Part shown: piece after piece, positions 31,070-58,857 of the stretch
How the letters are laid out: each line of letters begins with the position of its first letter
Position numbering within the stretch: position 1 is the first letter of the stretch
Assembly (NCBI RefSeq): GCF_921293095.1
Contig: NC_060258.1
Span: 5,456,001-5,520,000 of the forward strand
DNA length: 64,000 bases
Reading direction: 5' to 3'
Origin: Ischnura elegans
Taxonomy: Eukaryota > Arthropoda > Insecta > Odonata > Coenagrionidae
Program-made: the position numbers and the translations under genes
The notes under the pieces: generated by a model
The model's input: the letters and a program-made list of their open reading frames with translations, nothing else
Told to the model about the DNA's origin: nothing
The model's database searches: none

Positions 31070-32902
31070 ATGGAGTATGACGAGAGCTCACTGGAAAGTT
31101 GGTGCTCCAACTCCAGCATCCGGAGGAGCGAGAGGGAAAGGCGGCAAAAAAGTGGAGTGTTACACTTTTACAGCGACAGCACGACGGCTGCCGTAAAAGA
31201 TTTAGGCAGGTATATTAAGGACCCCATAGTCAACGAGGACTTCAATATAACTTGGGAAGGTCGCGAATAAAGAGTTCGCGTTACTCAATGTGGCGGTAAG
31301 TATTTAAATTTTTACGAAGTATAGTGTGTGCGGCAAAAATTAAGCGGCCTTAATTGCAATAAATATTGGTTTTGCTTTCCTTAGGATCAATGGAGGAAGC
31401 CAAGGAGTCTCAAATGTATTTCGAGAGGCTCATGGCAGTCAATGTGCCCATCAAAGAGGCCATTGAGCTGTGCTGCTACCCCGCACATGCTAATATGCGC
31501 ATTAGGAGGGAGAAAGCTAAGTACACGACAAACGCGAGACGGCAGGAGTGTGTGGCGGCAATACCGGCCGGAGATGCCGTAATTGGGAGCCCCGTGCCGC
31601 TTCCAAAGCCTGACGCTATTTCCGAGCTGACGGAGGAATTGCGGAATGCGGGTAAGTGAAATATTTATATACATGTATATGTAATGGGCGAAATTCAACC
31701 TAGATCATTTACAAATTTTTTCCAATTCCATTTATATTTTCATTATTCTTTCCTATTTTAGGGAGTGAAGCGCAGAAGGGAAACATACGCTTAAAATATG
31801 CAGCCATATTTCATGGCGGTGGAGAGGAAAAGGTAAGAATCATGTCATTTATGGGGTCTGAGTGAAGTCCTCCATTCTGTAACAAACCTAGTGGAATTAT
31901 CATGTAACCTTGTCAGGGGCACTGACATTGTGATGATTATATGCTGTGTTCCTTGCTATCCTTCTCCTTAGCGAGATAGATCGATATGACCCCACTGTGG
32001 TTAGTCTAGTTAGCTATCTATTCTTCATGTTGTGAAGGTTTTTATTCCTTCCGCGTAATACATTTGCGGGAGCAAGCCATTGTCTTGCACCTCCCTTTTA
32101 AAGGCATATTGCGGTATCTAGTGCCTTAAAGTGAATTTACTCAATTACTCATGCCTATCTTTCAGGTTGTACTGTACCCAGGGTACAAAGTTACCATCGG
32201 ACGAAATGCGAAGGCGAAAATTGTCCATTCTGCAGCGGGGAATCCGGCGAAAATGCAGTGGCAGTTGCTATTGGAATTTAAAGGGAGGGAGTACGTTATG
32301 AGCCACTCGGCCACAGGCCAGAGGTTTGGCGCAGATAAAAGTGCACTCCCGCCAGCGGACAAGGATACCTTGAGTGCCGTGGAACGTGAGTTCTTTCTAT
32401 TTTTCTGCAGTATAAGGCTGCAACTTATTCAATTGTTAAATGCTAATTATTATCTCTCAATCATAAAGATGCGTGCCATTTTTTGTGGTGTTAACGCAAA
32501 TCTACTTTTTTCACAGTGTTCGTGAAGTTCAAATGCTCGGGGGTGCCCACTCCAGCGGTGGCCTCAACCTTAAACAAATTGGCGGGGAATCTCCGGATGT
32601 ATGGCCAGCGGAGGGAGGGCAAGAAATACAGCTACCCCCGAAAGTCGACGAAGTAAGTTATATTTCATAAAGAATTATTACTCGTTACTTTATACAATTA
32701 AAGAAGTACAGTTCATTCAAAATAACTGGTAATAAAAGGTCTAGCTCGCCGCAAACCTAAGTCCGTTTTATCCAAATTTGAAATTCATTGGGTGTTTTGT
32801 TATTTGAGGCCCGCTGCAGCCACCATGAAGGCAGCCGATATCCCCGAGGACGTGCGGAGGATGTTAGAAGGTTTGGAGGAGGACGGCGAAAATTCTATCT
32901 AA
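31070..32902 (+). pseudogene. BEN-domain gene 1, six exons, one stop
   Basis: Exons: 31070-31295, 31385-31651, 31762-31832, 32166-32385, 32517-32652, 32809-32902. All but the last two junctions match gene 3 in phase, and all match gene 2. Exon 1 has the family start MEYDESSLESW and VLHFYSDSTTAAV. The BEN domain lies in exons 4-5: VVLYPGYKVTIG, WQLLLEFKGREYVMSHSATG, KSALPPADKDTLSAV, then a basic end. BEN domains bind DNA or mediate chromatin contacts. A TAA at 31268-31270 in exon 1 interrupts an otherwise open reading (EGRE-stop-RVRVTQCG). The gene is dead or starts downstream. It ends with TAA at 32900 and AATAAA 74 bases later. Confidence 0.72.
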
Positions 32903-32975
32903 ATTGCATGTATCTCATTGAAATGTATAAATTGTCACCACTCGTGTTATTTTTTAAGTGTTTTTTTCATTTCAA

Positions 32976-32981
32976 AATAAA
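32976..32981 (+). terminator. polyadenylation signal of BEN gene 1
   Basis: AATAAA lies 74 bases after the stop codon of BEN gene 1. Confidence 0.6.
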
Positions 32982-33109
32982 TGTGTGAAGAGTATATGTT
33001 GTTTTATTGTAATGCAATACTTGCGTTAAGTTAATGCAGTGAAATCACTCCCTTATCATTAAGGCGCGATTGTCTTGCCGAGTGTAATTATAGTTTGATG
33101 GAGGAGATT

Positions 33110-33560
33110 CTATAAGAAAGTTGGGTGAGTACTGTGAGTCCATCAGTGAATTTTAAAAGTGGAAGTAACTCGTAGGTGGTGAGAATCTAGTCGCAAACTG
33201 GACTTAACTCTGTAAGAAGGTGGAAAACAGATTCACAGTAGCAAAAGTGGGAAAACCAGATTCAAACCTGTAGGATGGTGAAAATCAGATTCAAAGTAGT
33301 AAATATGGGGAAAGAGATTCAAATCTGTTGAACGGTGGAAACCAGATTCAAATCTGTCGAATAGTGGAAATCAGATTCAAACCACCCGTGAAGGAAATGA
33401 GTAGGAAAACAGCCGCCATATTGGATATTTCCAACTGTCTTCCTACTGCTTTCCAGCTGTTTCAATTTTCAAAACAGATTCAAATCGGAGGGAAATCCGT
33501 GCGTCAAACCTGTTGGAAATCAGTGTCAAATCTGATGGAAATCAGTTTTTCTTTGCTGGG
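33110..33560 (+). repeat. terminal array 1 (CAGATTCAAA repeat)
   Basis: About a dozen degenerate copies of a 25-30 bp unit with the core AATCAGATTCAAATCTGT lie between about 33170 and 33540. The array ends in CAGTTTTTCTTTGCTGGG at 33560. It lies just after BEN gene 1 and 345 bp before the 3' end of transposase gene A. Subterminal arrays are typical of CACTA/EnSpm transposons, where transposase-related proteins bind them. Confidence 0.7.
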
Positions 33561-33904
33561 TTCTGATTCAATTTTATTTACTCTTTTACTGCAGAAAAAC
33601 TTCCCTTCTACAGAACATAATATACACACATCTAAAATTTTATTGATATCAATATTTTCAAATTCATGACTTTCAATTAATTCAAACAAAAAAATCATTT
33701 TTTGGAAGTCCTTTAACACACACAGTGGAGCACTTGTTTACAATTGCTTTAAATTTGCATTCACAGATGCAAGTACTCTCACAATCACAAAGTTAATACT
33801 TCACAAACATTTTCACAGTAGCAAAAGAATTGTCACCACAAAGGACCAGAGATGAATCATTTTTTAAGCCACCACTGCAGACATAGTCCCTCTTAACAAT
33901 AATA
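33561..33904. other. spacer between terminal array 1 and transposase A
   Basis: AT-rich; no gene or inverted repeat partner was recognised. It may contain the 3' untranslated region of transposase A. Confidence 0.35.
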
Positions 33905-36900
33905 CTATTTTCTTTTCCTATTTTTATTAAAAATCCAAACTTTTGGCACATTTTCAACATGGCAGATATCCATAAGCATTTCAATAGTTTCCATTAAAAA
34001 TGCACTTGGTTGAAGTACTGATCTTAAGTGTCCCAAAACAAATGTTGTGCCGTCAATCTCTTCCGTAAATCTTATGCCGTGATGCAGCCTTGTCACGTAA
34101 TTCTTAGAAGTGGAATCATAGCAAAGCTCATTTATGGCTGCAGGTAAGCACTTACGCAGCTGAAAAGACTCAGCAATTTTTACTTCTGCTAATCGAGTTC
34201 CTGTGACCTGGGCTTTAATTTGGCCCAGTAGGGACTCCAAGGGAAAGCAGGAACTTTCATTGCCGGGTCTATGTAGACGTACGTAATCTGCCAAATGGGT
34301 CAGGGCATGAAGATGAGCAGACATAAACCTTTCTCCATATATAGCAGAAAACTCTTGAACAAATTTCTTAATGCGTACCTAACTCCGCAAGATCAACTGC
34401 CCGAACAACATTTTGGTTGAGCAGGTACATAGCTTCAACCAACAGAAAATAATGACAAAAAACTTCAGGAATTAGCATGTCATGCAAAACAGGGATGGAA
34501 AAGTAATATAACCAGCTTTTATACTCAGCAGTTTTATAAAATGGCATACATGTTTCAACGCTCCTAGGAGGGCGAGTGATAAATATATGGGGTTTGAGTT
34601 GTCTTAGTCTCTTGTCAATGACTTTGACTTCACTGTTTATATTACATCTAAGCTCTTTGAAACAGGGTTTCAACCACAGTTCCATCAAGCGCTTTGACAC
34701 ACCAAAAACACAGTGCATGAAATCAATTTTAGAGCCAGAAATGAAATCTGGCATAATTTTCGATTGTTGAAGCACACCTTTAAAACCAAAAACAGGCTTC
34801 CTCGTCTTTTCAGCTTCAAGGCAGTGCCTCTTTGAGGCTTTTGCAGTTCGCAGGGGTGCAATTTCATTGTATTCATAACAGAAAACTCTACTTTTGCATG
34901 AAAGTAGTACAGACTTGCCTTTATTAAGGCACTTAATACAGCCAAAAAAACCATTGAAATTTTTCATACTATACATAATCGCCTTGGCTGGCATATCAGC
35001 AATGCTACTTAGCACAAAGCTCCTCACTGTTTCCAAAGACCTATCACAAATAATCATTGACATACCATTCTTGAGTGTTTCAAACACTTCTATGAAATGG
35101 TGCAAAACAGCGAATGGTGAAATCAGGTTTGGCGGAACCATGCCATAAGCCACCTAGCACAATGTTTTCCATCAAAAATCTTTTAGAATAAGGAAGTTCA
35201 TTTATCACAAATGATATGGGCCATAAAGTAATTTTGGAAGAGTTAAATAATCGCATCCCATCAGTATAAACCATGAATGTGAAATCATAAGCACCCTATA
35301 AGTACTTATTGAGTTGCTTATACAATCTACTATCAGTACACAGTTGCAATTTATCATCATCTCCCCTATTACTGTGAAATCGATGAGTTAGAGCAGAACA
35401 GAAATCACTTTGGAGAAATAGTTCCTTGATCTGTGCTTCTACATCAAATATAAGTGCATTGGCTGTTTTTACATGGGTGTCACAGTCTCTAGCATTATTG
35501 CTGACCAGTTTCTCACACTGAGCACAATACTGCATCTTACTGAAAGATGGAGTTTTACCTTTAAAAATGCTTTTCAGCTTAAATGTGGAAGTCACCATTT
35601 TGTTACCAGATGGCAAATGCAGTGAAAGTAGCTCAAGCAACTTATCCGTGCAGGCATTGGACAACTTAAAATGCAGGTAAAATGAAATCAGCATAATACT
35701 ACTTTCTAACACAGTAATCACAGAACCTTCATACAGTTTGTCATTCACTGTGATCCCTGGAGGTGATTCTTTGTAGTCGTTTTTATCAAAGCTTGCTTCA
35801 TCGTCTAGGGAGTAGTAACTGCAAGTCTCACTGCAATCAGACTCTTCATCTGAATTCTCCAAGAAGTCATCATAATCTGAAATTATTTAATGGTGGATGT
35901 TAGGCATCACCCACTTCATCTTAACATGGACTGCCATGACTGTAAATGTCACCTTATTCACCCAAAATTTAGCTTATAAATGCCATGCAATACACATAGT
36001 CAGTGTTCAATCTATTGCCATCTCATGGGAGGCTAACAGCAAATACAGGATATACAGCGAAGACGGTCATGTGGATTACACTTGTAAAAGAACATAAGTC
36101 TCATGAGGCAACTAATATGGAGAAAACTCAGCTTAAAAAATTTCATGATAGGGTATGTAGATGGAATAGCATTTAAATCACTTAATTACAGGGCAGAGGC
36201 ACAGCAAGGAATTAAGGATGGGGGGGTTTCGGTGCAATTAATACCAGGGTGTGTGGGGGTATGGTATACCCACCTGGATAAGTGGTAGGAGAGAGATAAA
36301 TAAATTTGCGGAATTTTAAGATAAATGGACCAAAATGGTGAGTTTTACGGCTTTCTCAGGGATATTTTATTAACCCTTACACAGTTCTATTAGTAATATC
36401 AATCCAGTTAAGTAAAATGGATTAAACTTAAAAATTTCTCTGAGCTCTGGGGGGTTTTTCATCCCCAAACACCCCCCCCCCTTGCTGTGCCACTTTTCTG
36501 GGGAGTATATAGAGCTCAGAGAAAATATGTAGAGGGAAAAATTGTAAATGAAAAAAGAAACAATTTTAATACTGCAATCAAGAGGACCCTGAAATAGTGT
36601 AACCTCATCCGAACAAAGACAAATGTCGGCCTCCCAGTAGAATTACTTCAGTTCTTTCGCTGGAGTGGGCAATGCAACGGATTATTATTACATCGGTAAC
36701 TTGATCTGAACGAGCTTCTATGGAATAATATTAATAACGTATTACCTTCTTCCATATTATAACATTCTTCACGCTGAGCTTGCTCGATATCCCCAACCAT
36801 TCTTGGAGTGGTCAAGGGAGGTTCTGAAAGAAATTGGATCTTAAATTATTTCGGCATCTTAAGAATTATATTAGGAAACTATGATGGAAATTCTAATTAT

Positions 36901-37165
36901 CTGGAACGCCATTAATTAATATTTGCATGGAAACGCATTAATGCATATACGGAATAACTAATTACGAATGCAAACATGCAACTTTAGGAAGATGATGAAA
37001 GAAGTCATCCTGCAAGTGAGACACGTACGAAACTTCATCTTCTTCGCGGTAAACATCGTCCGACATGTATAACTGCTCACTGTCCACAGAGGAGTTCTGA
37101 TATTGCCTCTTCTTTCTTCTCCACTCGGTTGTTCTCGACAATCCACAATACAGTCGTGTAGACAT
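33905..37165 (-). pseudogene. transposase-like gene A (CACTA/EnSpm-like)
   Basis: Exon 1, from about 37165, has MSTRLYCGLSRTTEWRRKKRQ, a basic segment shared with gene C. A small exon spans 36823-36746. The main coding exon starts at 35876: an acidic stretch, a Cys-rich segment (YCAQC near 35520), TDGMRLFNSS, GGLWHGS, FGCIKCLNKG, MPDFISGSKIDFMHCVFG, SWLYYFSIPVL, YGERFMSAHLHALTHLADYV and FPLESLLGQIKAQV. These resemble the TNPD/DUF4218-type transposases of CACTA elements, an assignment by pattern only. Damage: TAA at 35296-35298, a frameshift near 35115 and another near 34370. It is divergently placed to BEN gene 2. Confidence 0.72.
36197..36492. mobile_element. ~295-bp MITE with G-rich inverted ends
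   Basis: GGCACAGCAAGG at 36198-36209 is matched by its complement CCTTGCTGTGCC at 36480-36491. Runs of G (left) and C (right) lie just inside. It sits in an intron of transposase gene A. No clear TSD was read. Confidence 0.6.
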
Positions 37166-37665: not shown

Positions 37666-39221
37666 ATGTTTAGCGAAGATTCCATGGATTCTGTGGAGAG
37701 CTGCCAGAGGAAATCGCAGAGATCTGGGAGGGAGAATCATCGCATCCTCTTCCACTGCGAAGAGGATGATACATATATGTTAGAGGATGATTATCGTAGG
37801 TATTTACCCGATACTTCACCTGTTGTGAACGGGAAATACAAAATCGACATTAAAGTGAAGGGGAGAACGAGGTTGGTGGAGGTGACGGCCCTGAAAATTG
37901 GAGGTAAGCGTTTTAACATATCTGATGGCATGGATTTTCCTTCCACGTTCAGCTTTGTGAATTTTGACGTTGAATTCGCGTTTTAATCCAGGCAGGGTTA
38001 AAGATTTCGAAGAATTAATGAATGAGGAGCCCGCAATGTCCATGATGAAGAAGAGGGAAGAAAATCCCAGGATCTTGAAGCCGTCGCCAATGAATTCGTT
38101 GAACGCCGTGGCGACTGCTGTGCATTTCTCCTGCATGATGGATGAGCAAGAGAATGCTGCACCGAGTATCAATCCTGCACCATCTGTCTCTCATCCTTGG
38201 GACAAGAGCGAGCTGGAGACAGCCTTCGACGAAATTAGGAACGCGGGTGTGCCTTGCTAGTGTTATTTACATTTAGATGTATGCCCATTTCATGAAAATA
38301 TATGCCCCAATAACTTCATTTTTTGTTTGTATGTACGTTTGCTATGCCATATGCGATCGGTATTTTCATTGGAATAAATTCCACGTTGCCTAGCAGCATG
38401 AATATTTAACTTAAATGTGGTATTTCACTATTGCAGGAAACCAAAACGCCATGGCCGACGCCACGTATCGGCTGTTCCTGCGCCTAAAACCGACAGGCTG
38501 GGATGAGCAGATAAAGCAACCATTAAGAGTATTTAGTTGCAGTTTGCTTCACGTGGTACACTGTTTTAAATTTCTTGGAAAAAAGGCCTATAATGAATTG
38601 CTAACATCTTTTAATCATTCTCTCCTGTCAGGTCGAGGTTTTTGCGGGGTCTAATGTTTGGATCAAAAGGAGGGACAAGATTGATACCCTGGAGAGAGAC
38701 CGAGGCAATCCGAGAAAACTGCAGAACTTACTCCTCACCAAAGTCTTCGGTGAGGAGTACATTCGTTGCCATTGCGCCACAGAGCAAAGGATCGAGTGCA
38801 ATGGCAACCTTGGAGCGGATAAAAATGTGCTGCAGGCTACTTCAAGTAAGGCTCTCTGTATTACTGTGACTCCTTTATAGTCAAGATTCCTTTAGGTAGT
38901 TGTAAAACTTTCACAATTCACTCAGTTTTGAATGTCATACCCTTAATGTATTACAATTATACTTGCTTTAGTCTTTTAAAGGGCTTCATTTTTGGAAAGT
39001 GATTGGGTTGAGCATTGTAAATTAATTTCTTCGTTCTCTCATCCTTTCTTTTTAGATTTTGTCCGCTGCAAGTTCCGCGGCGAAAAGAATTTCACCACAA
39101 TTAATCATGCTTTCAACACTCTGTCCAATAATCTGCGGGTGAAGCAGAGAAGGAAGATGGGACGGTCCCAAAGGCGATCTTCCTTCCCGGCGATTTTGAA
39201 ACGGTCCCAAAGGCGACCAAA
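37666..39221 (+). CDS. BEN-domain gene 2 (last exon not found)
   Basis: Exons: 37666-37903, 37992-38246, 38437-about 38514, 38632-38845, 39056-39221. Junction phases equal those of gene 1. The start MFSEDSMDSVES is chosen by homology to the other two genes. Exon 4 carries the BEN core: VEVFAGSNVWIKRRDKID, NPRKLQNLLLTKVFGEEY, CHCATEQR and GNLGADKNVLQA. Exon 5 gives FRGEKNFTTINHAFNTLSNNLRV and a basic tail with an RSQRR repeat. Two oddities: the donor of exon 2 is GTGTGC, and exon 3 has no GT at the expected end (AAAG then CAACC). The final exon after 39221 was not recognised. The frame is open throughout, so it could be functional if exon 3 splices. Confidence 0.65.
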
Positions 39222-40683
39222 GTAAGTCTTACTACATTCATAGTTGTCATCTGCAGATGTCAGTGCTTAGATTATTAAGGCAAATGATTTCCTCTGGAAT
39301 ATTATGGAACAGAATTTTAATTATTATTTGTATTAGGTGCATCTAATTTTGTTTGTAGTAATAGGCAAAAAATTAATTTACATATTGTATACTCAAATAT
39401 CTAGAAATTCATTAACTAACTGATGTAAAATGTCAGTAACTGCTTGTTGACTGAAGGTTTTAATTTTTTGGTCATCATGGAAACTGTTCTAAGTGCCCTT
39501 AATTATTAGAATTAAAGATAATACTTGCACCTAGGCTGAAAGTTTTGCATCTAGCCTATTTTTAATGAGAATCTCAACCTAGCTGAAATATGTAATGAGA
39601 TAACTTCACTCGTAGACCCTACCCTTTAAAATTCTAAGTATGTACACATTTCGGTACAAAAAACATGGTGATGCTGAAGGCGATGTTGGCATTTGATTCG
39701 CCCAATCCTCAACCGTTGTTCAATACTGATTGGGGGAAATCTTTATTCCTGATTAGGGTGAATCCCAATGTTCATGCAATCCCTGATCTTAAACTATTTG
39801 TGATTTATTGTGAAATCCATTGTTTGCAGCATGATTTTTTCATCTAAAATTGGTATTATTCTGACAAGGAGACATCGCCAAAGTGATGTCGGGATCTGCA
39901 TGCGGATGTTATATTCTGAAACTATATAGGTAAGGTAGAAAAAGTGTCACGGCTTTCTTCCACATAGGCCCGGGTTCGAGAGATATTCGCTCTTAATGAT
40001 TTCGCGCAGCATGACATCCCTTGAGTAATCGCTCCCTCTTACTTACTGCCGTGTTTTTCTCTCTTCTAATTTTTTATATCACTGTTACATTTTATCCCCA
40101 TTCGTTTTATTTAGTTACTTCGCGATTTTTTAAATTTAACACAAATTTATGGATTTTAAACGAAACTCCGAATTGTGCCTTACCACGGCGATTACAAAGC
40201 AATACTGTCGAATCTCGCATTTAAAAATATATATTTTTTGTTAAAACCACGTCTAAAATATTGAAATTATAAAAAAAATAAACTAAAGCAATATATCAAT
40301 AAAAACATAGATAAACTGGACAAACAAACAATTATAAGGTAGGAGTCGAAATGACTCCATTTGGTAGTTCTAGGGGGGATGTCAAGTCCGGTATTCCTAG
40401 TGTTAAGATGCCTAGTATCTTTCTCATTTGAAATAATTGACGGTTAGACGTCCTTCGTTTGATGGTGGTATGAATGCAGTGTAATTAATGAGGGAAACAA
40501 CGGTTCTGTGTTTTAATGTCATTTGATTTTTTTTGCAAACAATTGTGTGATCATTATGCTTTCACTGGTTATCTTATCATATTCGACTATCTATTTTAAA
40601 ATGTGGTTTTGAGTTATGTCATTTGTGATTCATCAGTTATTTTTCTTCTCTATGGCAGGAGCGCCCAGCTTCCATAATATATT
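39222..40683. other. spacer, nothing recognised
   Basis: AT-rich non-coding DNA after BEN gene 2. It should contain the missing last exon and the 3' end of that gene, but no confident homology was seen. Short frames here look random. Confidence 0.35.
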
Positions 40684-40685
40684 TA

Positions 40686-40939: not shown

Positions 40940-41000
40940 TATTTATAATTATTGTTTGTGCATTTGATGTAATTGGTAATTCGTAGTAATAATTGATGTA

Positions 41001-41253: not shown

Positions 41254-41544
41254 TATTTATAATTATTGTTTGTGCATTTGATGTAATTGGTAATAATAAT
41301 TGATGTAATTGATATTTTTCAATTTGTAATAAATTGTCTTTTGAAAACTGTTGTAGTCATTGCAGAAACAGCTATTGCTCACAATCACTTAAACACTTTA
41401 TCTTTCATCATGAATGCAACATAGTGGATGGAACCAATTATGTGATCAACCAATGTTGGCTAGGTTAAGCAAGGGGATTTATGGTGTTCCATATGATTTG
41501 ATGAGGGAATTTCAATGGATTGGGCAGGAGAATTGTATTCAGCC

Positions 41545-42294
41545 AAACAAGGGGGTTTCAGTCTGGGAGGCAAGGGAGTTTCAGTCTGGCAGGCAAGGGA
41601 GTTTCAGTCTGGCAGGCAAGAGAGTCTCAGTCTTGCAGGCAAGGGAGTTTCAGTCTGGCAGGCAAGGGAGTTTCAGTCTGGCAGGCAAGGGAGTTTCGGT
41701 CTGGTAGGCAAGGGAGTTTCAGTCTGGCAGGCAAGGGAGTTTCAGTCTTGCAGGCAAGGGAGTTTCAGTCTGGTAGGCAAGGGAGTTTCAGTCTGGCAGG
41801 CAAGGGAGTTTCAGTCTGGCAGGCAAGGGAGTTTCAGTCTGGTAGGCAAGGGAGTTTCAGTCTGGCAGGCAAGGGAGTTTCAGTCTGGTAGGCAAGGGAG
41901 TTTCAGTCTGGTAGGCAAGGGAGTTTCAGTCTGGTAGGCAAGGGAGTTTCAGTCTGGTAGGCAAGGGGGTTTCAGTCTGGTAGGCAAGGGAGTTTCAGTC
42001 TGGTAGGCAAGGGGGTTTCAGTCTGGTAGGCAAGGGAGTTTCAGTCTGGTAGGCAAGGGAGTTTCAGTCTGGCAGGCAAGGGAGTTTCAGTTTAGCCAGC
42101 CCAGTCGGCCAAGGGAGTTTCAAGGGAGTAGCTGGAGTACCTAATTGCACTGCTATTGCACTGCCATCCCTCTTCCAAACTCCACTGGTTTGTTTCAATT
42201 TCAATGCAGTTTCAGCATAGAAGCAAGGCAGTGAGTTTTAAGGTAGTTTCAGCCCAGTTTCAGTCAAGTTGCAAGGGAGAAATTTTTACCTGAG
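41545..42294 (+). repeat. terminal array 2: ~23 copies of a 23-bp repeat
   Basis: The unit is GGGAGTTTCAGTCTGGCAGG plus CAA, almost perfect from about 41555 to 42085, with a GGCAGG/GGTAGG variant alternating. Because 23 is not a multiple of 3, all three plus frames are open and give repetitive peptides; these are artefacts. Degenerate CAGTTTCAG copies follow, and the array ends in GAGAAATTTTTACCTGAG at 42294. It lies after BEN gene 2 and 332 bp from the 3' end of transposase B. Confidence 0.9.
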
Positions 42295-48278: not shown

Positions 48279-49710
48279 CTACTTTCTCTGAACATACAGG
48301 CTCAGAGTAGAAGTCCTTGATTTTTTAGCCTTTTTCCTTTGAAAGCTATTTTGGAATCTTTTTTCCCCTATAAATTCTATGGAAATTATTGATCCACAAT
48401 GCAGAACAGCACAGTTATTTGGAGAGCATGTAGGAAGCAAGTAATTGCTTACACACACTTTCCTAAATCCATGGCCACTGAAACCATCCGGAATAGGAAG
48501 GTTGCTTGGAGTTGGCTCTTGATGCGTTTGATCGGAGTTTTCTTTCATTCCCAAAGCATAACTCCTTTCGGACAACCTTCTCACTCTCTGCTGCAGAGGT
48601 CTTTCACTTTTCTTTCCTAATTTCTTCAGGCTTTGCAGGAAATTCTCAAATTTATATGCACTGAAGTCATCCAGAGGGCCATATCGTCTCGCATCCTCCA
48701 CAATGTGGATGAGATTATGGACATTGCGGGAGACACTCTCTCTCCCATACAATTTAGAGAAGCAGGAAACAAAATACTTCATCAGGTCATAGGCAGAGTC
48801 CAGGTACTTCCCCATTAGCCTTGATGAGAGTTAAACTCTCACAGCAGCATGCAAACAGCAGAAATGCATGAAGACATCGTCACTCAACACATTTTTGAAA
48901 GCGTATGGGCCCACAAGCCTGCATAAAGGTTTAAGCGTTTCTTTAGGTGGGAGACGGAGGGTATTTTGCTACCCCTCTTCAGAAAATGTGGAGTTGAGGA
49001 CTCATGAAAAGTCCTTGGAGCATTGTTCTTCTGCACTGCTGAATGGCACAACCACTGTTTTTGGGTTCAAAGGAGAGAACATGTTCTCTAAATTTGTTCC
49101 GGATTTCATAAATGGTTGTGGGATAGATACCATGCATTCAGTGTTTGCTGGTATTGGGGGAAAACGTTTGATGGAGTTATGGTTTAAATCAGCTTTCTGC
49201 ATTATTGTAAGACGTACCTCAGAGAGTACTAAAGGGCGCAACTTATAGTGAAGATTTAATGACAGAACAGATATTGCTATTTTCCACAAATTTACTTAAA
49301 TAAGTACCATTTAGGAAAATTGCCATTTCTCTTTTTCATTGAATCAGGATATCATTCCATTATATCTCGCCTGCCTCAGTTAATGTAACTATGGTCAACA
49401 CTTAACATTGGTTAATTAGCCCACCGTAAGTCTGCACTAGAATCCCAAATAAATACAATACTTTAATGCTCTAGATACCAGCATCAAATAATTATTAGAA
49501 GGCATTTACTATCCTGACCCCCTCACCTTTGTCGGAGCTAAGTCCGAAGTAGTCATTTTCCAAACTCTCACTCAGCACGAACTGTGAACGGAGTTCATTT
49601 TGCTCCTCATCCTGATAAGTCTCTTCAAGTGGATCGCCAATGGTTTCCTCCGCTTCCATAATTCTTCTCTTTCGCCAGATGGTAGTGCGTGATTGACCGC
49701 TTTACGATTT
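48279..49710 (-). pseudogene. transposase-like gene C with internal inversion
   Basis: Exon 1 (49710-49527, GTGAGG donor) encodes SRTTIWRKRR, matching gene A, then an acidic stretch. The C-terminal part (48815-48279, minus) has YGRESVSRNVHNLIHIVEDA, GPLDDFSAYKFENFLQSL and KPLQQ-type RVRRLSE, typical of the DUF4218-like region. The middle (FCYPSSENVELR, FGFKGENMFSKFVPDFINGC, IDTMHSVFAG, KRLMELW) is present at 48868-49248 but reads on the plus strand. An internal segment has therefore been inverted, so no full protein can be made. An upstream stop also precedes the first usable ATG (49659). Confidence 0.75.
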
Positions 49711-49719
49711 ACTCGCCAT

Positions 49720-50441: not shown

Positions 50442-53400
50442 ATGTCTAGAATAGTTGAGTACGATGAAGACTCGGTTGACAGCGTGCGATCATATACCAC
50501 TAGAAGTAAGCGGGAGAAGAGAATAAAGGCTGTGCTATACTTTACGTCCGATGAATCCACCGCCATTGTAGATCATCTTGCAGATTTCCTGCCTGAAGTC
50601 AAAAGTGTGCTGAGAGGGCAAGCACACCTAATTAAGTGGAACCCTAAAGCAGCGGAGCCCGACCAGGAGGTTCGAATTGTGAAGAAAAGAGGTAAGTATG
50701 ATAACCAATTCGAATCGACATTTTCCATTGTAATTTGGCCATTCATTGGCAATTCACATTAGCTATGCGAATATGTTGGTTCCTAAGATGGGCTGATGAG
50801 GAACGTACTGAATACTGTATTTCTATATTCAAGTAATGAAAATAGTGTCATCGCATGCGACGATGTCTATGATTGGATTACGTGATAAGGCCTGCTTACA
50901 CGGTACATTAACACGTACGGGTTAATGTCTAAATGTATGAACGCGAGAATGAACGCCAAAATGTACCATGAAACCACCCTACTTGTGCGAATGCATGCAC
51001 AAAGAATAGAACCTGTTCTAATTTGGTTTATGCATTCGTACATGTTCCGCTCCGGTCCACGAAAATCATTCACGCAAACGTACATTAACTCGTACGTGTT
51101 AATGTATCGTGTAAACAGGCCTATAGGAAAGTTTGATGCATTAGTCCAAGTGGAGCTCTTTCTCCATGCAAGTAAATGAGTATGGACTGCAGCGAATGTT
51201 CATGCATTGTGTGACCGGGGCTCCACCCCTGTCGTAGGATGTGGTTTTGGGTTTTGTGCGTGGGTTTCACCGTTGCTCTCAAGTGTGTCATGGTTAATTT
51301 CGACATAGTGTTACACTCGTCATTTTAATAAAATGAATGTTACCCATTGTTATTGTGGCTTAGAATAGTGTTGGTACGGAGAAGCTACATATGACTTTAT
51401 GCTTGAATTTTATGGTATCTTTTGTAAAAGTGACTAATTATCTTCCTTTTATATTCTAGGCACTAGGATAGAATGTGAGGAGGTCCGTGAGGAGTTTGAG
51501 GTGCTCACATGCTCTATGGGGGTAGATGAGGCCATAAACATTTGTGAAAAAACGCCCAACATGTTAAGCAAAAGGAAAAGCTGTCCCTCTACCCGGCCAC
51601 CACAGGCACACGGCACCGCTTAATTTTTGTAGTATTAAATGACAAGTGTGCTTTCTAATTTGATGCTTATTTGTAAAAGTTGCAATGATGCGATTTCTAG
51701 ATTCACAATTTTAAATGTTCATTAGTCAATCACGAAATATTCTTACCTTATTCTCAACGCTGTCTCAAGTAAATTTTTGGGAAGATGGTTAAATGGCATA
51801 TAACATTTAGTTCATTGGGGAATGTATGAAGTTATGTGTGGGTGTTCTTTGGAAGTGTTCATGATACTCAACTTGATACATCTTAGAATCTTTTCTCACT
51901 ATAACTCTTGAAGTACAATGGCAGTATGCCAAAGGTACGGACACGTGGCGTTACTAGGAATATTCTTTTGGGGAGGACTTGGGGGGGGGGGGCTACCCCC
52001 ACAAGCAACAAGGAGTCCAGGAAAATTTTTGAACAATAACATGCCTAGAAATGCTTTTTGCATAATTTTGGGAGTTCAAATTTAACTTAAGGCAGATACA
52101 GTTATTGGGTATGTCTAATTCAGGCAAGAGTTTTAAATATTTTTAAAATTTCTGAGGCTTTTGGGGTGGGGTAGCTATCCTCTCTCCCCCCCTCCAATAG
52201 TTATGCGAATGCAATGGAATTTTTAGTTTGTAATTTTGACCAAGAAAGCTATCAATTAAGGACCCAAGCTCCATTTTCCTAAGATAAACTGATCCAATCA
52301 TTTTGGCCCCTAAGCAGATTTCTTTCTAATATTAGCATTGGAAAAGAGTAGTGAATTTGCTCTGGTTTGTGTGGGCTTTAAATAGGATCTCAAATTTCTT
52401 TGTAAATACCATTTGTTTAAAAAAAAGTATTGTCTGTTAGGGTTATTTGTTGTTAGGCAAATGTTTTAAATTTCACTTGAAGGAAGTCCCCAGGGGGAGT
52501 AGGAATATTTGTTAATAGCTTTGTGTGTGAATTGTTTGTATTATGTACTATCAGGTTATGTCTACATCTGGTACAATAATATAGTTGATTTAGAAAGAAA
52601 TGAGTTCCATAGATGTAGAAATTATTTTCAGCATATCTTCCAAGGCAGCTTCGTAAGGTATCCAAACCTTTTAAAAAGCAGTTTTTATGGTGTACAAATC
52701 AGTTTCATAGCCAATTCCAGAGTAGTTACAAGGCAGTTTGGGTGGTGTACAAATCAGTTCCATTGCCAATTCCAAAATAGTTACAAAGCAATATGGATGG
52801 TGTACAAATCAGTTCCAAGGGTGGGTGAGTGGTACAACTCAGTTCCATTGCCAATTCTAAAGCAGTTACAAAGCAGTCTGGATGGTGTACAAATCAGTTC
52901 CACGGGTGGGTGATTGGTACAAATCAGTTCCATTGCCAATTCCAAAGCAGTTACAAAGCAGTCTGGATGGTGTACAAATCAGTTCCACGGGTGGGTGATT
53001 GGTACAAATCAGTTCCATTGCCAATTCCAAAGCAGTTACAAAGCTGTTTGGATAGTGTACAAATCAGTTCCACGGGTGGTTGAGTGGTAAAAATCAGTTC
53101 CACGGGTGGTTGAGTGGTAAAAATCAGTTCCATTGCCAATTCTAAAGCAGTTACAAAGCTGTTTGGATAGTGTACAAATCAGTTATAATGCTAATTCCAT
53201 ATGAGTTTCAAAGGTAGAAGAGATGAGGAAATGTATCCCAAAGCAGTTTCCATGGCAAATCCAAAGGAGTTGATGGCATAGGAGGAAGGTATGATGTCAT
53301 GAACTGCTGTGTACCTTGTTTCAATTCAACAGCAGTTGCACATACAAATCAGTGGTACAAAGCAAATAGATGGCAGTTCCAAATGGCTTACACAGCAGAA

Positions 53401-56121
53401 ATTTTTCCCTGAGTTGCGGTCGCTTTACACGTGGCGCCAATTAGTACATCCCGTTGAATTTAAATACTACTGAGGTATAGTATGCTTGATGGATTGGGAT
53501 TGGGATTTCCTACCGACGCGCGATCACAGATATATTAATTTTATATAAATGTGCGCGCGATCATGTCATTTTGCTATCATTCTCACCGTTGGAAACTTTC
53601 CACGATATGCCATGATATGCATTACTTCTTAAGTGGTTCATTTCGTTATTGGTGATGCCTATTGCAGGTCGATATGAATTATTTCCGTTGAGTTTATCGG
53701 TATCGTATTTTTATTATTTCCGGTCGCTTTGCACGTGGCGCCAATTCGTACATTCCGTGGAATTTAAATATTCCTGATGTATAGAATGCCCGATGGAAAG
53801 GGATTGTGCTGTTTTTGCCGTCGCGAAATCATGTAACTCTGCCACCGTTCTCACTGTAGGAAACTTTCCACGAGACTATTTCCCTGCGTGTGCGTAAATA
53901 CTGTGCAAGTCAGTGTCCCTCTTGAAAAGCCTTTAAAATATTTCAAGTGCCTTGATGAAGCCGTTTTTTATGTCTTTATCAGGTGATTGGTAGCGCTAGA
54001 AGGTCAAGGCCCCACTGAAGTGCCTTTTCTATTTAGGCGAATGCTTATTAAGGTCCGCTTCTGAGATCTTGATAAATGCTTTTATTTGTCTAATATGCAA
54101 CATTACATTTTCATGTTGTAGGTAAGGACCAGGACATGAAAGAGGCAAAGGAGGAATTCGAGCATCTGATGGGGAAGGAAAATATGTCGCCATGCAAGGC
54201 CATCATGGTTTTGCATGGTGAGCCTCCTGCTCCAAGCAGGAGGAGGAGATGCCCAAAGATGGGCAGTAATGTTACCAATCTGGCTCCCATTCGTTCTGGG
54301 GAAGATTTCCCCCCTCTAGCCGATGCTATTGGAAATGCCCTACGGATTCAAGGGGACGTCGATTGGTTCAATTCAGAGGCTATTGGGCCAAGAGTGCCAG
54401 AGCCAATTGGGTCAAGAGTGCCAGAGCCTGTTTCGATACAGCGCAACATTAATAATAGTTTGGCCAACATTGAAGGTAGACCATCAATCGATGCACTGTT
54501 GGCTAATGCCGGTAAGTTCTTCATGATTTCATGTTTTTTTTATTAAGAATAGTCATGGATAACTGATCACAATATAATATCCTGATTGTTTCCATTGGTT
54601 TTTAATAGATTCTTATTTCATTTTTAGCTGATGATTGTGAAAAAGGGCGCATTCTGCTGCAGCATGCACGGCATTTCTTGAAGAAAGGCCCTTCAGAGCT
54701 CACAGTAAGTCTTCTTGGTGTAGTACCTTTATATATATGTTCCAGTATCCTGTCACTGCATTCTATAAGCTAACATGTTATTTTCAGGCTTTATTGCATC
54801 CTTCGTACAACATTTATATGCAGAAAGTAGACAAGATATCTGCCATTACCATTGGAACGACACCTAAGAGACTGCAGGAGCAGCTATTGTTAAAATTGTT
54901 TGGGAGGGACTACATTGGAGGTCATTCTGCCAGCGGCCAAAGGAGAGGGAGAGGTGGGAACCCCGCTGCAGATGTGGAGACGATGGAGGCCGCCGATGGT
55001 AATTACTGATGTCGCATGGGAGGAATCAATATTCTAATTCTTCCCTTGGAATGATTGGGCATGTTAAATATCCATGGAATGTTGAGTAAAGGCGGTTTTA
55101 CACGATGCACGGAATTGCGCTATCTGATGTACATGCGAAGGCAGTCAAAATTGCGTCGTGCATAGCGGTGAATTGCTAGAACACATGCGTGGACGCTAGA
55201 CTGCGAAATAGCCCATTTTCCAATTTCGTTCATGCATTCCCACAATGCCACGCCATTTTAGAAATTGATGCAGCTCTAACCTGCGCAATTCCGTGCACCA
55301 TGTAAAACGGCCTTAAGACTTTCAACAGTCCTTGAACTCTTGTGGAACCACAATAGTCAATATTATATGTACCCATTTTTGTGTCAAGTTTGATGATAAT
55401 AATGTCAGTGCTACGAAAGAGCTGTTCACTGTGAAAGAAACATTTAACAATACTGCTTGTTTCCCAGCATCTAGTGTAGGTTTTTCTTTATTTTGATTAT
55501 GGTATTTTCCGGCCTGGTAACCCTTGAATACCCGCACATTCTTTGCCAGTTTATTATACGTTGTTGAAAGCCGTGGAACCTCTTGGCCTTTAAACTTAAT
55601 CTTGACATATGCTGAAATCAAAGTAATGATAATCTTAGAATATGTGTGCTAAATAAAGCCTGATTTTAGTTCTCTATGAGTAGTTACAGAGTAGGCTGAC
55701 ATAATGCATTCTATGAAAAGAGATGAAAATGTTGTGATGACACTAATTTGAAATGGATTTTTCTGAGAAATTGGGGATAGTTTTTGTAACAAATTTATAT
55801 TTTACATTCATAAAAATACTGCGCACAGTACTTGTCATTTTTTGGTAGCTGTAACCTGACATTTTTTTAACTTCTCAATGTATTGCTGTCCATCATTGAC
55901 ATTCTGTCATTTAAGAAATAAATGTACCTTAACTGATGGCTCATGACTGCAATGCTCTAACCAGTATCGCTATAGGGTTTTAAGGCACACAGCACAGCTA
56001 ATCCTTAAAAATTCCAGTTTTTCCTTTGAACTTTACATGTTCTAACAATATGATGTCTGCATTCTTTGTAATTTCAGGAAGGCAGCCAAAGAGGCATGTG
56101 GAACATCATCATGAAGATTGA
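50442..56121 (+). CDS. BEN-domain gene 3, intact when spliced
   Basis: Exons: 50442-50691, 54122-54511, 54628-54704, 54788-54998, 56078-56121, with junction phases 1, 1, 0, 1 as in gene 1. All donors are GTAAGT-like or GTAATT. Exon 1 holds MSRIVEYDEDSVDSV and VLYFTSDESTAIVDHL. Exon 2 is acidic and polar with a PEPIGSRV-type repeat. Exon 4 is the BEN core: LLHPSYNIYMQKVDKISAI, PKRLQEQLLLKLFGRDY, GHSASGQRR. The end is RHVEHHHED-stop, and AATAAA lies at 56365. No stop interrupts. The large first intron contains an alternative exon (51460-51623), a MITE and a terminal array. Alternatively the exons from 54122 on belong to a separate gene that lost its first exon. Confidence 0.65.
50888..51122. 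mobile_element. 235-bp MITE, TSD ATA
   Basis: Inverted ends of about 40 bp: AGGCCTGCTTACACGGTACA on the left and AGGCCTGTTTACACGATACA from the right. ATA flanks both sides (50885-50887 and 51123-51125). The 3-bp duplication suggests a Harbinger-like or CACTA-like origin. It lies in the first intron of BEN gene 3. Confidence 0.85.
51460..51623 (+). CDS. alternative second exon of BEN gene 3 ending in stop
   Basis: The acceptor ATATTCTAG and phase match exon 1. It reads TRIECEEVREEFEVLTCSMG and is a paralog of the start of the exon at 54122 (KEAKEEFEHLMGKENMS) and of exon 2 in gene 1. It ends at TAA 51621-51623. Its use would give a short protein without the BEN domain. It may instead be the remains of a complete BEN gene cut by the following terminal array. 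Confidence 0.45.
51630..52660. other. intronic spacer with a G/C-run inverted element
   Basis: Mostly AT-rich and unassigned. At about 51947-52207 a segment with G-runs on the left and C-runs on the right, bounded by loosely inverted GCGTTACTA and TAGTTATGC, may be a MITE; support is weak. Confidence 0.3.
52680..53413 (+). repeat. terminal array 3 (AAATCAGTTCC repeat)
   Basis: Composite repeats of about 55 bp (CAGTTCCATTGCCAATTCCA then AAGCAGTTACAAAGCAGTCT then GGATGGTGTACAAAT) alternate with a 30-bp version (CAGTTCCACGGGTGGGTGAT). The array ends in CAGAAATTTTTCCCTGAG at 53413. It lies in the long intron of BEN gene 3, or separates two genes. Open frames across it are repetitive artefacts. 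Confidence 0.88.
53414..53850 (+). repeat. ~100-bp direct repeat with CACGTGGCGCCAA core
   Basis: CGGTCGCTTTRCACGTGGCG followed by CCAATT-GTACAT and GTGGAATTTAAATA occurs at about 53419-53515 and again at 53723-53815. It begins a few bases after terminal array 3. A shorter CACATGTGGCGCCAA lies at 47051, upstream of transposase B. It could be promoter DNA of a lost exon or the start of another element. Confidence 0.7.
55090..55313. mobile_element. 224-bp MITE, TSD TAA
   Basis: Inverted ends AGGCGGTTTTACACGATGCA and, from the right, AGGCCGTTTTACATGGTGCA, with the shared CGGAATTGCGC just inside. TAA flanks both sides (55087-55089 and 55314-55316). A TAA duplication is typical of PIF/Harbinger elements. 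It lies in the last intron of BEN gene 3. Confidence 0.87.
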
Positions 56122-56364
56122 GTTGGAAGAGTAGAAGATTAGAGTCGGCCATTCTTATACCTTAATTAACTGTATAATTATGGATAATTGGATCCTTTAG
56201 ATTTAGAAAACTTAAAAAAAACTCTTAAGATAGCAGCAGGATCAACTGACAAATGTCGCTACGCATTCTGCGTATGGGTACGCTTTTGGTGTTTGTGGCC
56301 AGTTTCAGGTCACGCACCAGTACGCTTGTGGATGCGAATGTGTTAAAGGATTGTATTTGTATTT

Positions 56365-56370
56365 AATAAA
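56365..56370 (+). terminator. polyadenylation signal of BEN gene 3
   Basis: AATAAA about 245 bases after the stop codon of BEN gene 3. Confidence 0.5.
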
Positions 56371-56844
56371 TTTCTTTTGTATCCATATCTTACTGTCATT
56401 TATTTTGCTCCATAGTTACAATTTAAGCTTCAGCAGCATGAAGTACGAACGGCTCCTTTCAATGAATTCTATTCTACAAGCAATCTACCATGTGTGGGGA
56501 AATTCAACAAAAGCAATTTTGTAAATTTAGGTGCATTTCAGTTAGTGTCTGTTGATGCACAGAAAAAGTTTTTCTCACAATTATCAATCTTTTGAGTGCC
56601 AATTTTGTCTTAATAAGGAATACAGTTTACCCTTTCTTTGACAAGTTTAAATCTGGTCATTTCCGTCTGATATATCTTGATCTGTTCCTTTATCAACATG
56701 GATCAGTGATTCAGGATCTTTGCAAATTTGCCTATGCAGATTTAATTGTTTTGTCTGCTGCGTTAAAATACATACCGGGAATTCAATAGCCTTTTCTAGG
56801 CTTTCAATTATTGTTTCAAGGAAAGAGTATTATAATGAATCAAC

Positions 56845-57097
56845 TTGCTGCACTGAGACTGTGCTATGGCAACTGTACTGTGGCAACAGCCCTCTGACTG
56901 AGCTAGGGCAACTGCACTCTGACTGCGCTAGGGCAACTGCACTCTGACCATGCTAAGGCAACTGCACTCTGACCGTGCTATAACTGTACTGTGATGTTTC
57001 AACTCAAGTGCAGTTTAAGTAGAGTTACAGTACAGCCCTTTTAGCACAGTTACAGTGCAGATTTAGTGCAGTCACAGCACAGATTTTTTTGCCTGAG
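56845..57097 (+). repeat. terminal array 4 (CAACTGCACTCTGAC repeat)
   Basis: Around eight copies of a roughly 25-bp unit (GGCAACTGCACTCTGACYGT plus GCTA) followed by degenerate CAGTTACAGTGCAG words. It ends in CAGATTTTTTTGCCTGAG at 57097. It lies downstream of BEN gene 3. Confidence 0.8.
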
Positions 57098-57109
57098 TAT
57101 TCATCGGCT

Positions 57110-57740
57110 TCAGGGAAATGGGTGTTTCTTTGGATTGTTGTTACCAACACTGTTTTCTATGAAAGGAAAGCTATAGGAGATGCAGTCAATGGTCTTCCAC
57201 TATTGTGCCCCACTCATTACAGGTCTGAATATGAGCTTGCAGAATAGGTTCAAAACCTATTTCAGTCTTTCAGCGGAAGTCAATGATGCAATTTTGGCGT
57301 CTTGTACCCATCCCTTCTTCAGGATGAGGTGGATTCCAATCGACAGAGTGGAGTTACGAGCGCATCTACAGCAAATGCTAATAAATGCAGCCAAAAAATT
57401 AAATCCTGATGTTTTCTGCTCCAGAAATGATGGAAATTCTTCAGATGAGGACTTCTTTGCCTTTTCAAATGACCCGCGACATTCCTCATTCCATGTTGTA
57501 AAAGGAATGAAATTGAAGTATTACAATTTCTTGGTGACAAATCGAAATGTCTGTCAACGTAAAATGCATACCCGGCTGTAAAAAAGTTGTTTGTGCGTTA
57601 TAACACTGGCCTCACATCCTGTGCTCCTGTGGAAAGGTTATTTTCTTTTGCAGGATTTATTCACAATTGCAAAAGAAGTAATTTAGCAAACTGTGTTTGA
57701 AACACTATTGCTTCTGAAGGGTAATGAGCATTTTTTGTAA
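57110..57740 (+). mobile_element. hAT transposase C-terminal fragment
   Basis: The plus-strand frame reads FHYCAPLITGLNMSLQNRF, AILASCTHPFFRMRWIP and SSDEDFFAF. In another register it continues KKLFVRYNTGLTSCAPVERL, FSFAGFIHNCKRSNL and ETLLLLKGNEHFL. The last part is the hAT dimerisation domain. At least two frame changes and the absence of the BED finger and catalytic N-part show it is a dead 5'-truncated remnant. It starts immediately after array terminus 4. Confidence 0.82.
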
Positions 57741-57769
57741 GTGAGACTAGTGAAATAAACAAATTATTA

Positions 57770-58440
57770 CCATATATTCTCCATATTATTTAAGACATTT
57801 TGCCCTGGATAATGGTCTGATCGCCAATTACCTATAAATACGTTGTAAGAATGTTTGACCCTCTCATTCTAAAAATAGTTCGTATTTGAATTGATTTTAA
57901 TGTTTTATTGGTTAAGAACTTCGTTGAAGGTATGTATTTTGTATTTTAGGAATGTATTTTAAAATTACATTTGTATTTTGTATCGAAAATACAATTTTTA
58001 TAAGTAATTTGTATTTGAAATACTGATTTTTAAAGTAATTTGTATTTTGTATGTAAAATACATTTGACATGTATTTTGCCCATCTCTGTCTGATATGCAT
58101 TTGAGTCTCTGATATCTTTTTGGATATCTATTTCAGATAGAGATAACTTCCGTCTTGGTTTATCGTCTTACCTACTCTTTATTCTCTTATGCTATTAGTT
58201 AGTCGAAATAATTTAATTAAATCTAATTCCATACATATGATAATTCATCCAGTAATTCAGGGTGCTCCAAATTTCTTTCGCATAACTGAGTCATTTTAAT
58301 GATTCAGTATGTTGCTTTCTAGTTTTTTTTATTTCTACAAAGGCACCTAGGTTAATTCAATCTTAAGGTAATGGTGACTTATTTCCAGATGAATATGTCA
58401 CATACAGTAACAGATTTGGGGTATGTCATTTCGATACTGT
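57770..58440. other. spacer, AT-rich
   Basis: No gene recognised. A run of TTTTGTATTT-like words at about 57940-58080 is a simple AT-rich minirepeat. Confidence 0.4.
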
Positions 58441-58444
58441 TTCT

Positions 58445-58857
58445 AGTGCTGGGCCTGCGTCGCCTTCATGTCAAGTCTATGTCGGACTTAAGTTGATTTC
58501 ATGTCGAGCCGGGTTAAGGTCCAATGCCACGCTGACAGCGTTTTAATGTCGGACCGAAGTCGGTTTGGTGTCAGGCTGAAGGCTGTTTGATGTCGAGTCA
58601 ATGTCAGTTTGATGTAGGGCCGACAACATTTTGATGTCGGGGACAAAGTTGATTTTTTGTCGTGCTTAAGTCGGTTTGGCGTCGAACCGAAGTCAGTTCG
58701 ATGTACGACCGACATCGCTTTGCAAGTCGGCTGTAGCCTGGCTAAACGTTGTCATTTCGACGATCGACCGACTTCGGTTCCCGACGTCGGATCGACCCGT
58801 AGACGACCTATGTCGCCGTCGTATTGACATTGGACCGACATCAAAATGCTACCTGGG
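58445..58857 (+). repeat. terminal array 5 (GATGTCGGACCGAAGTCGGTT repeat)
   Basis: About eighteen degenerate 20-22-bp units built on GATGTCGG, GACCGAAGTCGGTTT and similar words. It ends in GACATCAAAATGCTACCTGGG at 58857. It shows the same polarity and style of end as the other four arrays. The start near 58449 does not carry a convincing inverted partner. Confidence 0.8.

What the first reader, a model, noticed from the sequence alone, without database searches (positions are those of the whole stretch)
31070..58857. Cluster of BEN-domain genes, divergent transposases and same-facing terminal arrays
Three homologous BEN genes (plus) and three homologous DUF4218-like transposases (minus) alternate, twice head to head. 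Every BEN gene is followed by a tandem array of unrelated sequence ending in CTGAG or CTGGG. The layout suggests a CACTA/EnSpm-like element whose second gene is a BEN protein, perhaps the factor that binds the subterminal repeats, present as several head-to-tail, mutually diverged elements. The two-gene plan parallels plant En/Spm (a transposase plus a subterminal-repeat binder), but a BEN protein in that role is not something I know to be described.
Basis: partly seen in the sequence, partly recalled or inferred. Interest (0 to 1): 0.88.

Follow-up and report, generated by a model that had tools for sequence, protein, structure and literature searches.

The report
Transposons carrying a BEN-like DNA-binding gene
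A group of cut-and-paste transposons in an animal genome carries, back to back with its transposase gene, a second gene for a protein resembling the BEN DNA-binding domain, which probably recognises the repeated sequences at the transposon's ends; the copies in this window are broken, but copies with both genes open exist elsewhere in the genome.

Summary
The window holds broken remnants of several CACTA/EnSpm-like transposons; whole ones exist elsewhere in the genome. F1 (7.6-7.9 kb, two whole copies) has inverted tips CCCAGCAAAGAAAAAC, a 784-residue transposase frame and, divergently, an open six-exon BEN-like gene of 343 residues. F3 (9.6 kb) and F4 (10.9 kb) have the same layout. Of 64 BEN rows, 24 have a head-to-head transposase within 10 kb, against 0.17 after shuffling. 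BEN-linked transposases lie on one branch, 100/100. A gene-less derivative keeps only F1's 302-410 bp subterminal regions; 9 of 10 others show exact 2-bp target duplications. So the subterminal repeats are very likely cis-acting, and the BEN-like protein is the best candidate to bind them. Binding is not shown. BEN identity rests on borderline profile similarity below Pfam's cut-off. My nine literature searches found no such element described.

The parts
31052..32902 (+). BEN1: six-exon BEN-like gene of family F1 (exons 31052-31295, 31385-31651, 31762-31832, 32166-32385, 32517-32652, 32809-32902), stop codon in exon 1
   Evidence: alignment to the open L065 gene; 91-94% DNA identity of about 31032-33560 to three F1 copies
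33210..33560 (+). F1 right subterminal repeats and right tip CTTTGCTGGG
   Evidence: the genome-wide tip scan places it at C13:5489536-5489560
33905..35886 (-). Transposase remnant of element E2 (BEN-linked branch), frames broken
   Evidence: Pfam DUF4218 E 4.2e-4; 43% to the F1 transposase; on the BEN-linked branch
37666..39222 (+). BEN2: BEN-like gene of element E2, divergent from the 33905-35886 transposase; last exon not located
41548..42294 (+). E2 right array (23-bp unit) and tip ...AAATTTTTACCTGAG
42836..46493 (-). Transposase outside the BEN-linked branch (Transposase_21), interrupted by a roughly 1.4-kb insert (judged by eye)
   Evidence: Pfam E 1.7e-5; tree
48279..48830 (-). Third transposase remnant (DUF4218), broken; perhaps the partner of the next BEN piece
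   Evidence: Pfam E 8.7e-4; pairing inferred from the layout only
50442..51620 (+). BEN exon 1 and a second exon of element X
   Evidence: splice patterns; homology of the second exon judged by eye
52687..53413 (+). Array of element X and tip ...AAATTTTTCCCTGAG
53414..57097 (+). Right part of an F3 element: BEN exons 2-4 (about 54122-54998), an inverted segment holding exon 5, right array 56882-56980 and tip ...TTTTTTTGCCTGAG
   Evidence: 94% to L071/L072 over 53414-55499; exon 5 reversed; tip exact match

Best explanation
This is a lineage of CACTA/EnSpm-like (tnp2/DUF4218) DNA transposons that carry two divergently transcribed genes: a transposase of about 780-845 residues (main exon) and a BEN-like protein of about 340 residues encoded in about six exons (full model made for F1 only). 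SHOWN: whole elements with matching inverted tips, 2-bp target duplications, open genes, subterminal repeats that in F1 face inward at both ends, and a gene-less derivative that keeps only the tips and subterminal regions. INFERRED: the transposase cuts at the tips; the BEN-like protein binds the family-specific subterminal repeats, brings the two ends together and may regulate the element, the role played by TNPA in plant En/Spm. In the window several such elements lie truncated and abutting or nested.
For: Whole F1 copies of 7891 and 7638 bp with flanks TC/TC and TA/TA; whole F3 of 9620 bp with flanks TT/TT, and F4 of 10885 bp. BEN open over 343 codons with GT-AG introns in both whole F1 copies; dN/dS 0.10-0.12 in all 6 pairs of 4 F1 copies. 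Divergent pairing: 24 of 64 BEN rows against 0.17 shuffled; 20 of 33 transposase loci at 35% or more identity to F1 have a divergent BEN, 3 of 95 others. A tip of the correct orientation lies within 10 kb downstream of 13 of 64 BEN loci, 0.12 shuffled. BEN-linked transposases, 5 of 20 rows, lie on one branch, 100/100. Subterminal word TTTGAATC in F1: 2 left, 5 right, all inward, none in the interior. 238 F1 tip matches with up to 2 mismatches, none for the reversed control; among the 100 of 238 listed, 25 inward pairs, 0 outward, 2 same-strand, and 19 of the 25 are 2048-2106 bp long. One derivative keeps about 410 and 302 bp of F1's ends and has no frame over 84 aa. Of 10 more, 9 have exact 2-bp duplications and 0 have 3 bp. 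BEN similarity: with the trimmed profile the three best PDB sequences are NAC1 BEN (E 0.0092, 0.013) and BEND6 (0.042); profile-profile match to four Pfam-positive BEN exons of this host, E 2.7e-6 for that single comparison, probability 88.6. A BEN-like fold already reads transposon ends in bacterial Tn3 TnpA (PMC9579193, passage).
Against: No binding or expression data. No domain sequence reaches Pfam's BEN cut-off (best E 0.0039; 5 of 8 match at all), and the full F1 protein gives no Pfam match. 37 of 64 BEN rows have no detected transposase within 10 kb. Co-divergence of repeats and BEN is not clear: of ten family pairs, shared 7-base words exceed expectation in F3-F4 (52 against 30.9, BEN exon 4 64% identical), but also in E2-X (18 against 11.1, no BEN exon 4 in X to compare) and F1-F3 (47 against 35.9, only 47% identical); F1-F4 is slightly above and six are below. 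F4 lacks a target duplication; F3 and F4 subterminal words are less strictly oriented; and the F1 copy on C1 shows about four extra bases against a related uninserted sequence (by eye).
Confidence: 0.62

Rival explanations
1. The BEN-like gene is a genuine element gene but acts on the host or on transcription rather than on the ends: for instance as a repressor or chromatin factor that shields or tunes the element, the subterminal repeats being bound by the transposase itself.
For: [quoted passage not shown] Related transposase groups without a detected BEN exist in the genome, so such transposases can apparently do without it.
Against: The F1 subterminal repeats are retained by the gene-less derivative, and BEN is tied to one transposase branch rather than scattered.
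Confidence: 0.25
2. The BEN genes are host genes that happen to lie in transposon-rich DNA and were captured or duplicated with it.
For: 37 of 64 BEN rows have no transposase within 10 kb; segmental duplication between C13 and C17 multiplies loci.
Against: Whole elements with both tips enclose the gene in three families; divergent pairing 24 of 64 rows against 0.17; 9 BEN loci without a divergent transposase have a correctly facing tip downstream.
Confidence: 0.06
3. The second protein is an unrelated helical DNA-binding protein whose similarity to BEN is chance.
For: All sequence matches are weak or borderline and below curated cut-offs; with the untrimmed profile kinesin light chains ranked above NAC1.
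Against: With the trimmed profile the best PDB sequences are BEN domains of two different proteins; profile-profile E 2.7e-6; one Pfam-positive BEN of this host used alone finds no PDB BEN domain, so weak scores are not unusual in this family.
Confidence: 0.12

Closest known systems
Plant CACTA elements (maize En/Spm, Antirrhinum Tam1, soybean Tgmt)
   Same: tnp2-type transposase; second protein beside it; family-specific subterminal repeats; deletion derivatives that keep the cis sequences (PMC2613891, passages)
   Different: Here two divergent separate genes rather than alternatively spliced transcripts; second protein BEN-like; tips CCCAG/CTCAG/CCCAT instead of CACTA; 2-bp duplication where Tgmt has 3 bp
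Animal EnSpm/CACTA, Mirage and Chapaev (CMC) elements
   Same: Transposase_21/DUF4218-type transposase; four aligned transposases share invariant D and E residues that could be the DDE triad (assignment recalled, not tested)
   Different: No BEN gene is known to me in these (recalled); Repbase could not be searched
Tn3-family TnpA (bacteria)
   Same: A BEN-like fold (DBD1) reads the transposon's inverted repeat (PMC9579193, passage)
   Different: There it is a domain inside the transposase; here a separate protein; presumably independent
BEND proteins, NAC1; bracovirus Ben genes
   Same: Profile similarity of the domain to NAC1 and BEND6; bracovirus Ben not compared here
   Different: Chromosomal or viral genes; no linked transposase is mentioned in the passages seen (PMC4574769; PMC10080584)

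Membership tests
CACTA/EnSpm transposons | tnp2 / Transposase_21 and DUF4218 transposase | tested here: met
   F3: Transposase_21 8.3e-9 over cut-off, DUF4218 1.5e-5 just below; F4: DUF4218 2.8e-7 over, Transposase_21 below; F1 below cut-off for both
CACTA/EnSpm transposons | Tips beginning CACTA (or CACTG) | tested here: not met
   Tips CCCAGC (F1), CCCATA (F3 on C6), CTCAGG (F4, window)
CACTA/EnSpm transposons | 3-bp target duplication (as in Tgmt; 2-3 bp recalled for the wider group) | tested here: not met
   2 bp in 9 of 10 gene-less copies, 3 bp in 0 of 10; TC, TA, TT, AA in four further elements, none in F4
CACTA/EnSpm transposons | Inverted subterminal repeats retained by non-autonomous derivatives | tested here: met
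   F1 and one derivative read in full; spacing of further pairs
CACTA/EnSpm transposons | Second protein that binds the subterminal repeats | not testable with these tools
   gene present and constrained; binding needs an assay
BEN domain family (PF10523) | Score over the curated Pfam cut-off | tested here: not met
   best E 0.0039; 5 of 8 members match at all
BEN domain family (PF10523) | Profile homology to known BEN domains | tested here: met
   borderline: PDB NAC1 0.0092 and BEND6 0.042 rank first with the trimmed profile, NAC1 fourth with the untrimmed one; hhalign E 2.7e-6 to 4 host BEN exons, 53 columns
BEN domain family (PF10523) | Five-helix fold with basic last helix contacting DNA | not tested
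   structure tool switched off

The most novel reading that the evidence does not exclude
The BEN domain is a recurrent reader of transposon ends: in this animal lineage a free-standing BEN protein is the obligatory partner of a CACTA-like transposase, diversifying together with its element's subterminal arrays, and such elements are a source from which host BEN transcription factors could have been domesticated.
Probability: 0.3. Interest if true: 0.82.

Novelty: new variant of a known kind. Interest (0 to 1): 0.68.

Why it matters
It gives animal CACTA-like elements a second protein that parallels plant TNPA but comes from a quite different domain, best known from animal chromatin and transcription factors. 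It offers a mobile home for BEN-like domains besides chromosomal and viral genes, makes a simple binding and excision test possible with copies whose genes are open, and, with Tn3 TnpA, suggests that the BEN fold has been used more than once to recognise transposon ends.

Tried and rejected
Rejected: that all three window transposases belong to BEN elements; that BEN genes are ordinary host genes (whole elements in three families); that the C14 pair L007/L008 is a single-gene element (their common stretch has no inverted tips). A scan of IMG/VR viral contigs with the F1 BEN protein found no relative. No other animal genome could be searched.

Literature, 9 searches. 'BEN domain' was combined with CACTA and transposon (1 paper), transposase and terminal inverted repeat (2), transposable element and domesticated (4), EnSpm (0), structural homology (4). 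I opened passages of PMC5704228, PMC9579193, PMC10781644, PMC4574769, PMC11075544, PMC10080584 and PMC2613891; none of these passages describes a BEN protein in a eukaryotic DNA transposon. Other listed papers (PMC5322367, PMC11732705, PMC13270666, PMC7642931, PMC8195511 and the four) were seen as listings only. Repbase and subscription papers are not held.

Left out or set aside: the pairs with L041, L047 and L049 were plainly misaligned and are not used; L044, L045, L046 and L048 do not show the exon excess and are reported. In one search one of 16 intended loci (L012) fell below my 350-residue filter. A first reading of the F1 copy on C1 as a clean empty-site proof was dropped: against the related uninserted intron at window 54720-54750 the right flank has about four extra bases, by eye.
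Full report
WHERE IT LIES. The window is C13:5456001-5520000 of a 1.72-Gb genome in 110 contigs. [quoted passage not shown] The naming is my inference, partly from memory, and plays no part in the argument.

THE OBSERVATION. BEN-like exons on the plus strand, transposase pieces on the minus strand and tandem arrays are present. The broken transposase pieces match DUF4218 and Transposase_21 below the curated cut-offs. Four right tips lie at 33560, 42294, 53413 and 57097; scanning for the corresponding left tips found none. The 15-base tip pattern with 2 mismatches alone is not beyond chance (3 found, 1.7 expected, 26 of 100 shuffles as high). The 17-base form gave 5 matches within 3 mismatches against 1.23 expected, no shuffle of 100 as high; the three at array ends are the best of the five. 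The 25-base F3/F4 tip gave one exact match against 0.00 expected.

WHOLE ELEMENTS. Searching the genome with the window's transposase gave 114 matches and with a BEN exon 59; the tool calls such counts lower bounds. Three near-identical divergent pairs led to family F1. Two whole copies are C9:98948742-98956632 (7891 bp) and C1:107863756-107871393 (7638 bp), with tips CCCAGCAAAGAAAAAC and flanks TC/TC and TA/TA. Their transposase main exons are open over 784 and 790 residues (5' exons not modelled), and the BEN-like gene is open over 343 codons in six exons with GT-AG introns. The third copy (L066) has a frame-shifted BEN gene and the window's BEN1 a stop codon. F3 on C6 (9620 bp, flanks TT/TT) and F4 on C17 (10885 bp, flanks TG/GA, no duplication) have the same divergent layout with transposase frames of 844 and 787 residues; their BEN genes were seen exon by exon, not modelled whole.

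PAIRING AND DESCENT. After merging, searches give 128 transposase loci and 64 BEN rows. 24 of 64 BEN rows have a divergent transposase within 10 kb, 3 only a convergent one, 37 none; random placement within contigs gives a mean of 0.17, maximum 3 in 500 trials (lengths of C2 and C15 were approximate). Of the 24, two (C13:5510788 in the window and C17:6344189) have as partner the transposase outside the BEN-linked branch, and two rows (C13:19670651 and 19672887) are exons of one gene; the two BEN genes at C1:107869976 and 107871446 were merged into one row. That leaves 21 distinct pairs, some of them segmental duplicates of each other. Of 33 transposase loci at least 35% identical to F1, 20 have a divergent BEN, 2 another BEN and 11 none; of the 95 others, 3 have a divergent BEN (two of them the cases just named) and 92 none. 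In one search, 13 of 64 BEN loci (merged slightly differently) have a tip of the right orientation within 10 kb downstream, against 0.12 shuffled (maximum 2), and 1 has only a wrong-facing tip; this used the 58 exact of 238 F1 tips and all 44 F3/F4 tips. A tree of 20 transposases puts the 5 that I labelled BEN-linked on one side of a branch at 100/100, and the window's 42836-46493 transposase (L005) among the others; I had labelled L005 as not linked because the BEN 8.8 kb away lies in the F3 piece. The tree is unrooted, the E2 and L005 rows are short, and the program warns of long branches. A BEN too diverged to detect in the other groups is not excluded.

CIS SEQUENCES. In F1 the word TTTGAATC occurs 2 times at the left and 5 at the right end, always reading inward, and not in the interior. 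F3 and F4 have subterminal arrays with other words and less strict orientation. The F1 tip, with up to 2 mismatches, occurs 238 times in the genome, 0 for the reversed control. Of the 100 of 238 places listed, 25 form inward pairs under 15 kb, 0 outward, 2 same-strand; 19 of the 25 are 2048-2106 bp long. One such copy (2053 bp, flanks AA/AA) shares only about 410 and 302 bp with F1, tips included, namely the two subterminal regions, and has no frame over 84 aa. In ten more copies the 2 bases on both sides agree in 9, the 3 bases in 0; one of these (C3:998269) has the same flanks as the C1 copy and is probably a duplicate of it. So these were very probably moved in trans, and what the one read in full keeps is the subterminal region.

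IS IT BEN? Single sequences score weakly: the full F1 protein none; 4 of 6 and 5 of 8 domain sequences match Pfam BEN, best E 0.0039, all below the cut-off. A profile finds NAC1 (0.0092, 0.013) and BEND6 (0.042) as the best PDB sequences once the tail is trimmed, the NAC1 match covering profile positions 3-76 of 102. Before trimming, kinesin light chains ranked slightly above NAC1 (0.0018 against 0.0038) through short repeats, none of which passed alone. Against four BEN exons of this genome that pass Pfam's cut-off, hhalign gives E 2.7e-6, probability 88.6, over 53 columns; this E is for one comparison, not a database. One such host exon used alone does not find PDB BEN domains. I therefore call it BEN-like. 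A structure could not be predicted.

CONSTRAINT AND AN ODDITY. dN/dS of BEN among four F1 copies is 0.10-0.12 in all six pairs. But third positions of BEN exons diverge much more than the rest of the element: 20 of 344 between the two whole copies, against 5 of 780 in BEN introns, 19 of 784 transposase third positions and 50 of 2116 in the left noncoding part. With that neutral yardstick the constraint is weaker (dN 0.0088 against about 0.02). Fisher tests of third positions against introns give p from 6.1e-6 to 1.5e-15 in the six pairs, which are not independent. In F3, C6 against L035-L040 and L042 shows the same direction (5.8-11% against 1.7-4.5%), but against L044, L045, L046 and L048 the introns diverge about as much or more, and 3' noncoding DNA of C6 and the window differs by about 7%, so conserved introns in the close copies are an alternative. 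I have no explanation; exchange with a spliced cDNA of a diverged relative, or selection on the mRNA, are candidates.

MECHANISM. The best reading is a two-protein system like En/Spm, where TNPD is the transposase and TNPA binds subterminal repeats, both being required (PMC2613891, passages). Here the BEN-like protein would be the second. Its binding to the arrays is inferred from the anatomy. Co-divergence was looked at in five families only and is unclear: F3-F4, whose BEN exon 4 is 64% identical, share 52 seven-base words against 30.9 expected, but E2-X (18 against 11.1) and F1-F3 (47 against 35.9) also exceed expectation, F1-F4 slightly (32 against 27.6), and six pairs fall below (expectation from simple shuffles, no p-value).

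KNOWN OR NEW. The transposase family is known; tips and 2-bp duplication depart from typical CACTA; a BEN-like partner in a eukaryotic DNA transposon was not found in my searches of the held library. The bacterial Tn3 TnpA has a BEN-like domain that reads the inverted repeat (PMC9579193, passage), so the idea of BEN as an end reader has a precedent.

Noticed in passing
L065:5119-6950 with L067, L066 and window 31052-32902: Third codon positions of the BEN exons diverge 3.5-9 times more than the BEN introns between them in all six pairs of F1 copies, and more than transposase third positions in the three copies compared.
   Followed up: partly
window 28271-28391: A 5S rRNA gene or 5S-derived repeat (Rfam RF00001, 58.9 bits).
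   Followed up: no
window 20291-22671 and 34603-37403 versus C17 (L074): Segmental duplication between C13 and C17, 93-98% identical; window 22671-34603 has no counterpart in the C17 stretch read.
   Followed up: partly
C13:5962477 and C17:4538257 versus window 33560: In three places an F1 right tip lies beside the 3' end of a transposase gene of the BEN-linked kind, suggesting one old insertion copied by duplication.
   Followed up: no
window 55496-55824: The segment with BEN exon 5 is inverted relative to C6; exon 5 is also reversed relative to exon 4 in L036, L037, L038, L044 and L045 but not in L039-L043 or L047.
   Followed up: no
window 57177-57650: By eye a hAT-transposase-like fragment; Pfam gave no match at E 0.01 for the ORF tested.
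   Followed up: partly
window 29550-31050: By eye a retrotransposon gag-like frame with a zinc-knuckle motif, running up to the start of BEN1; Pfam gave no match at E 0.01.
   Followed up: partly
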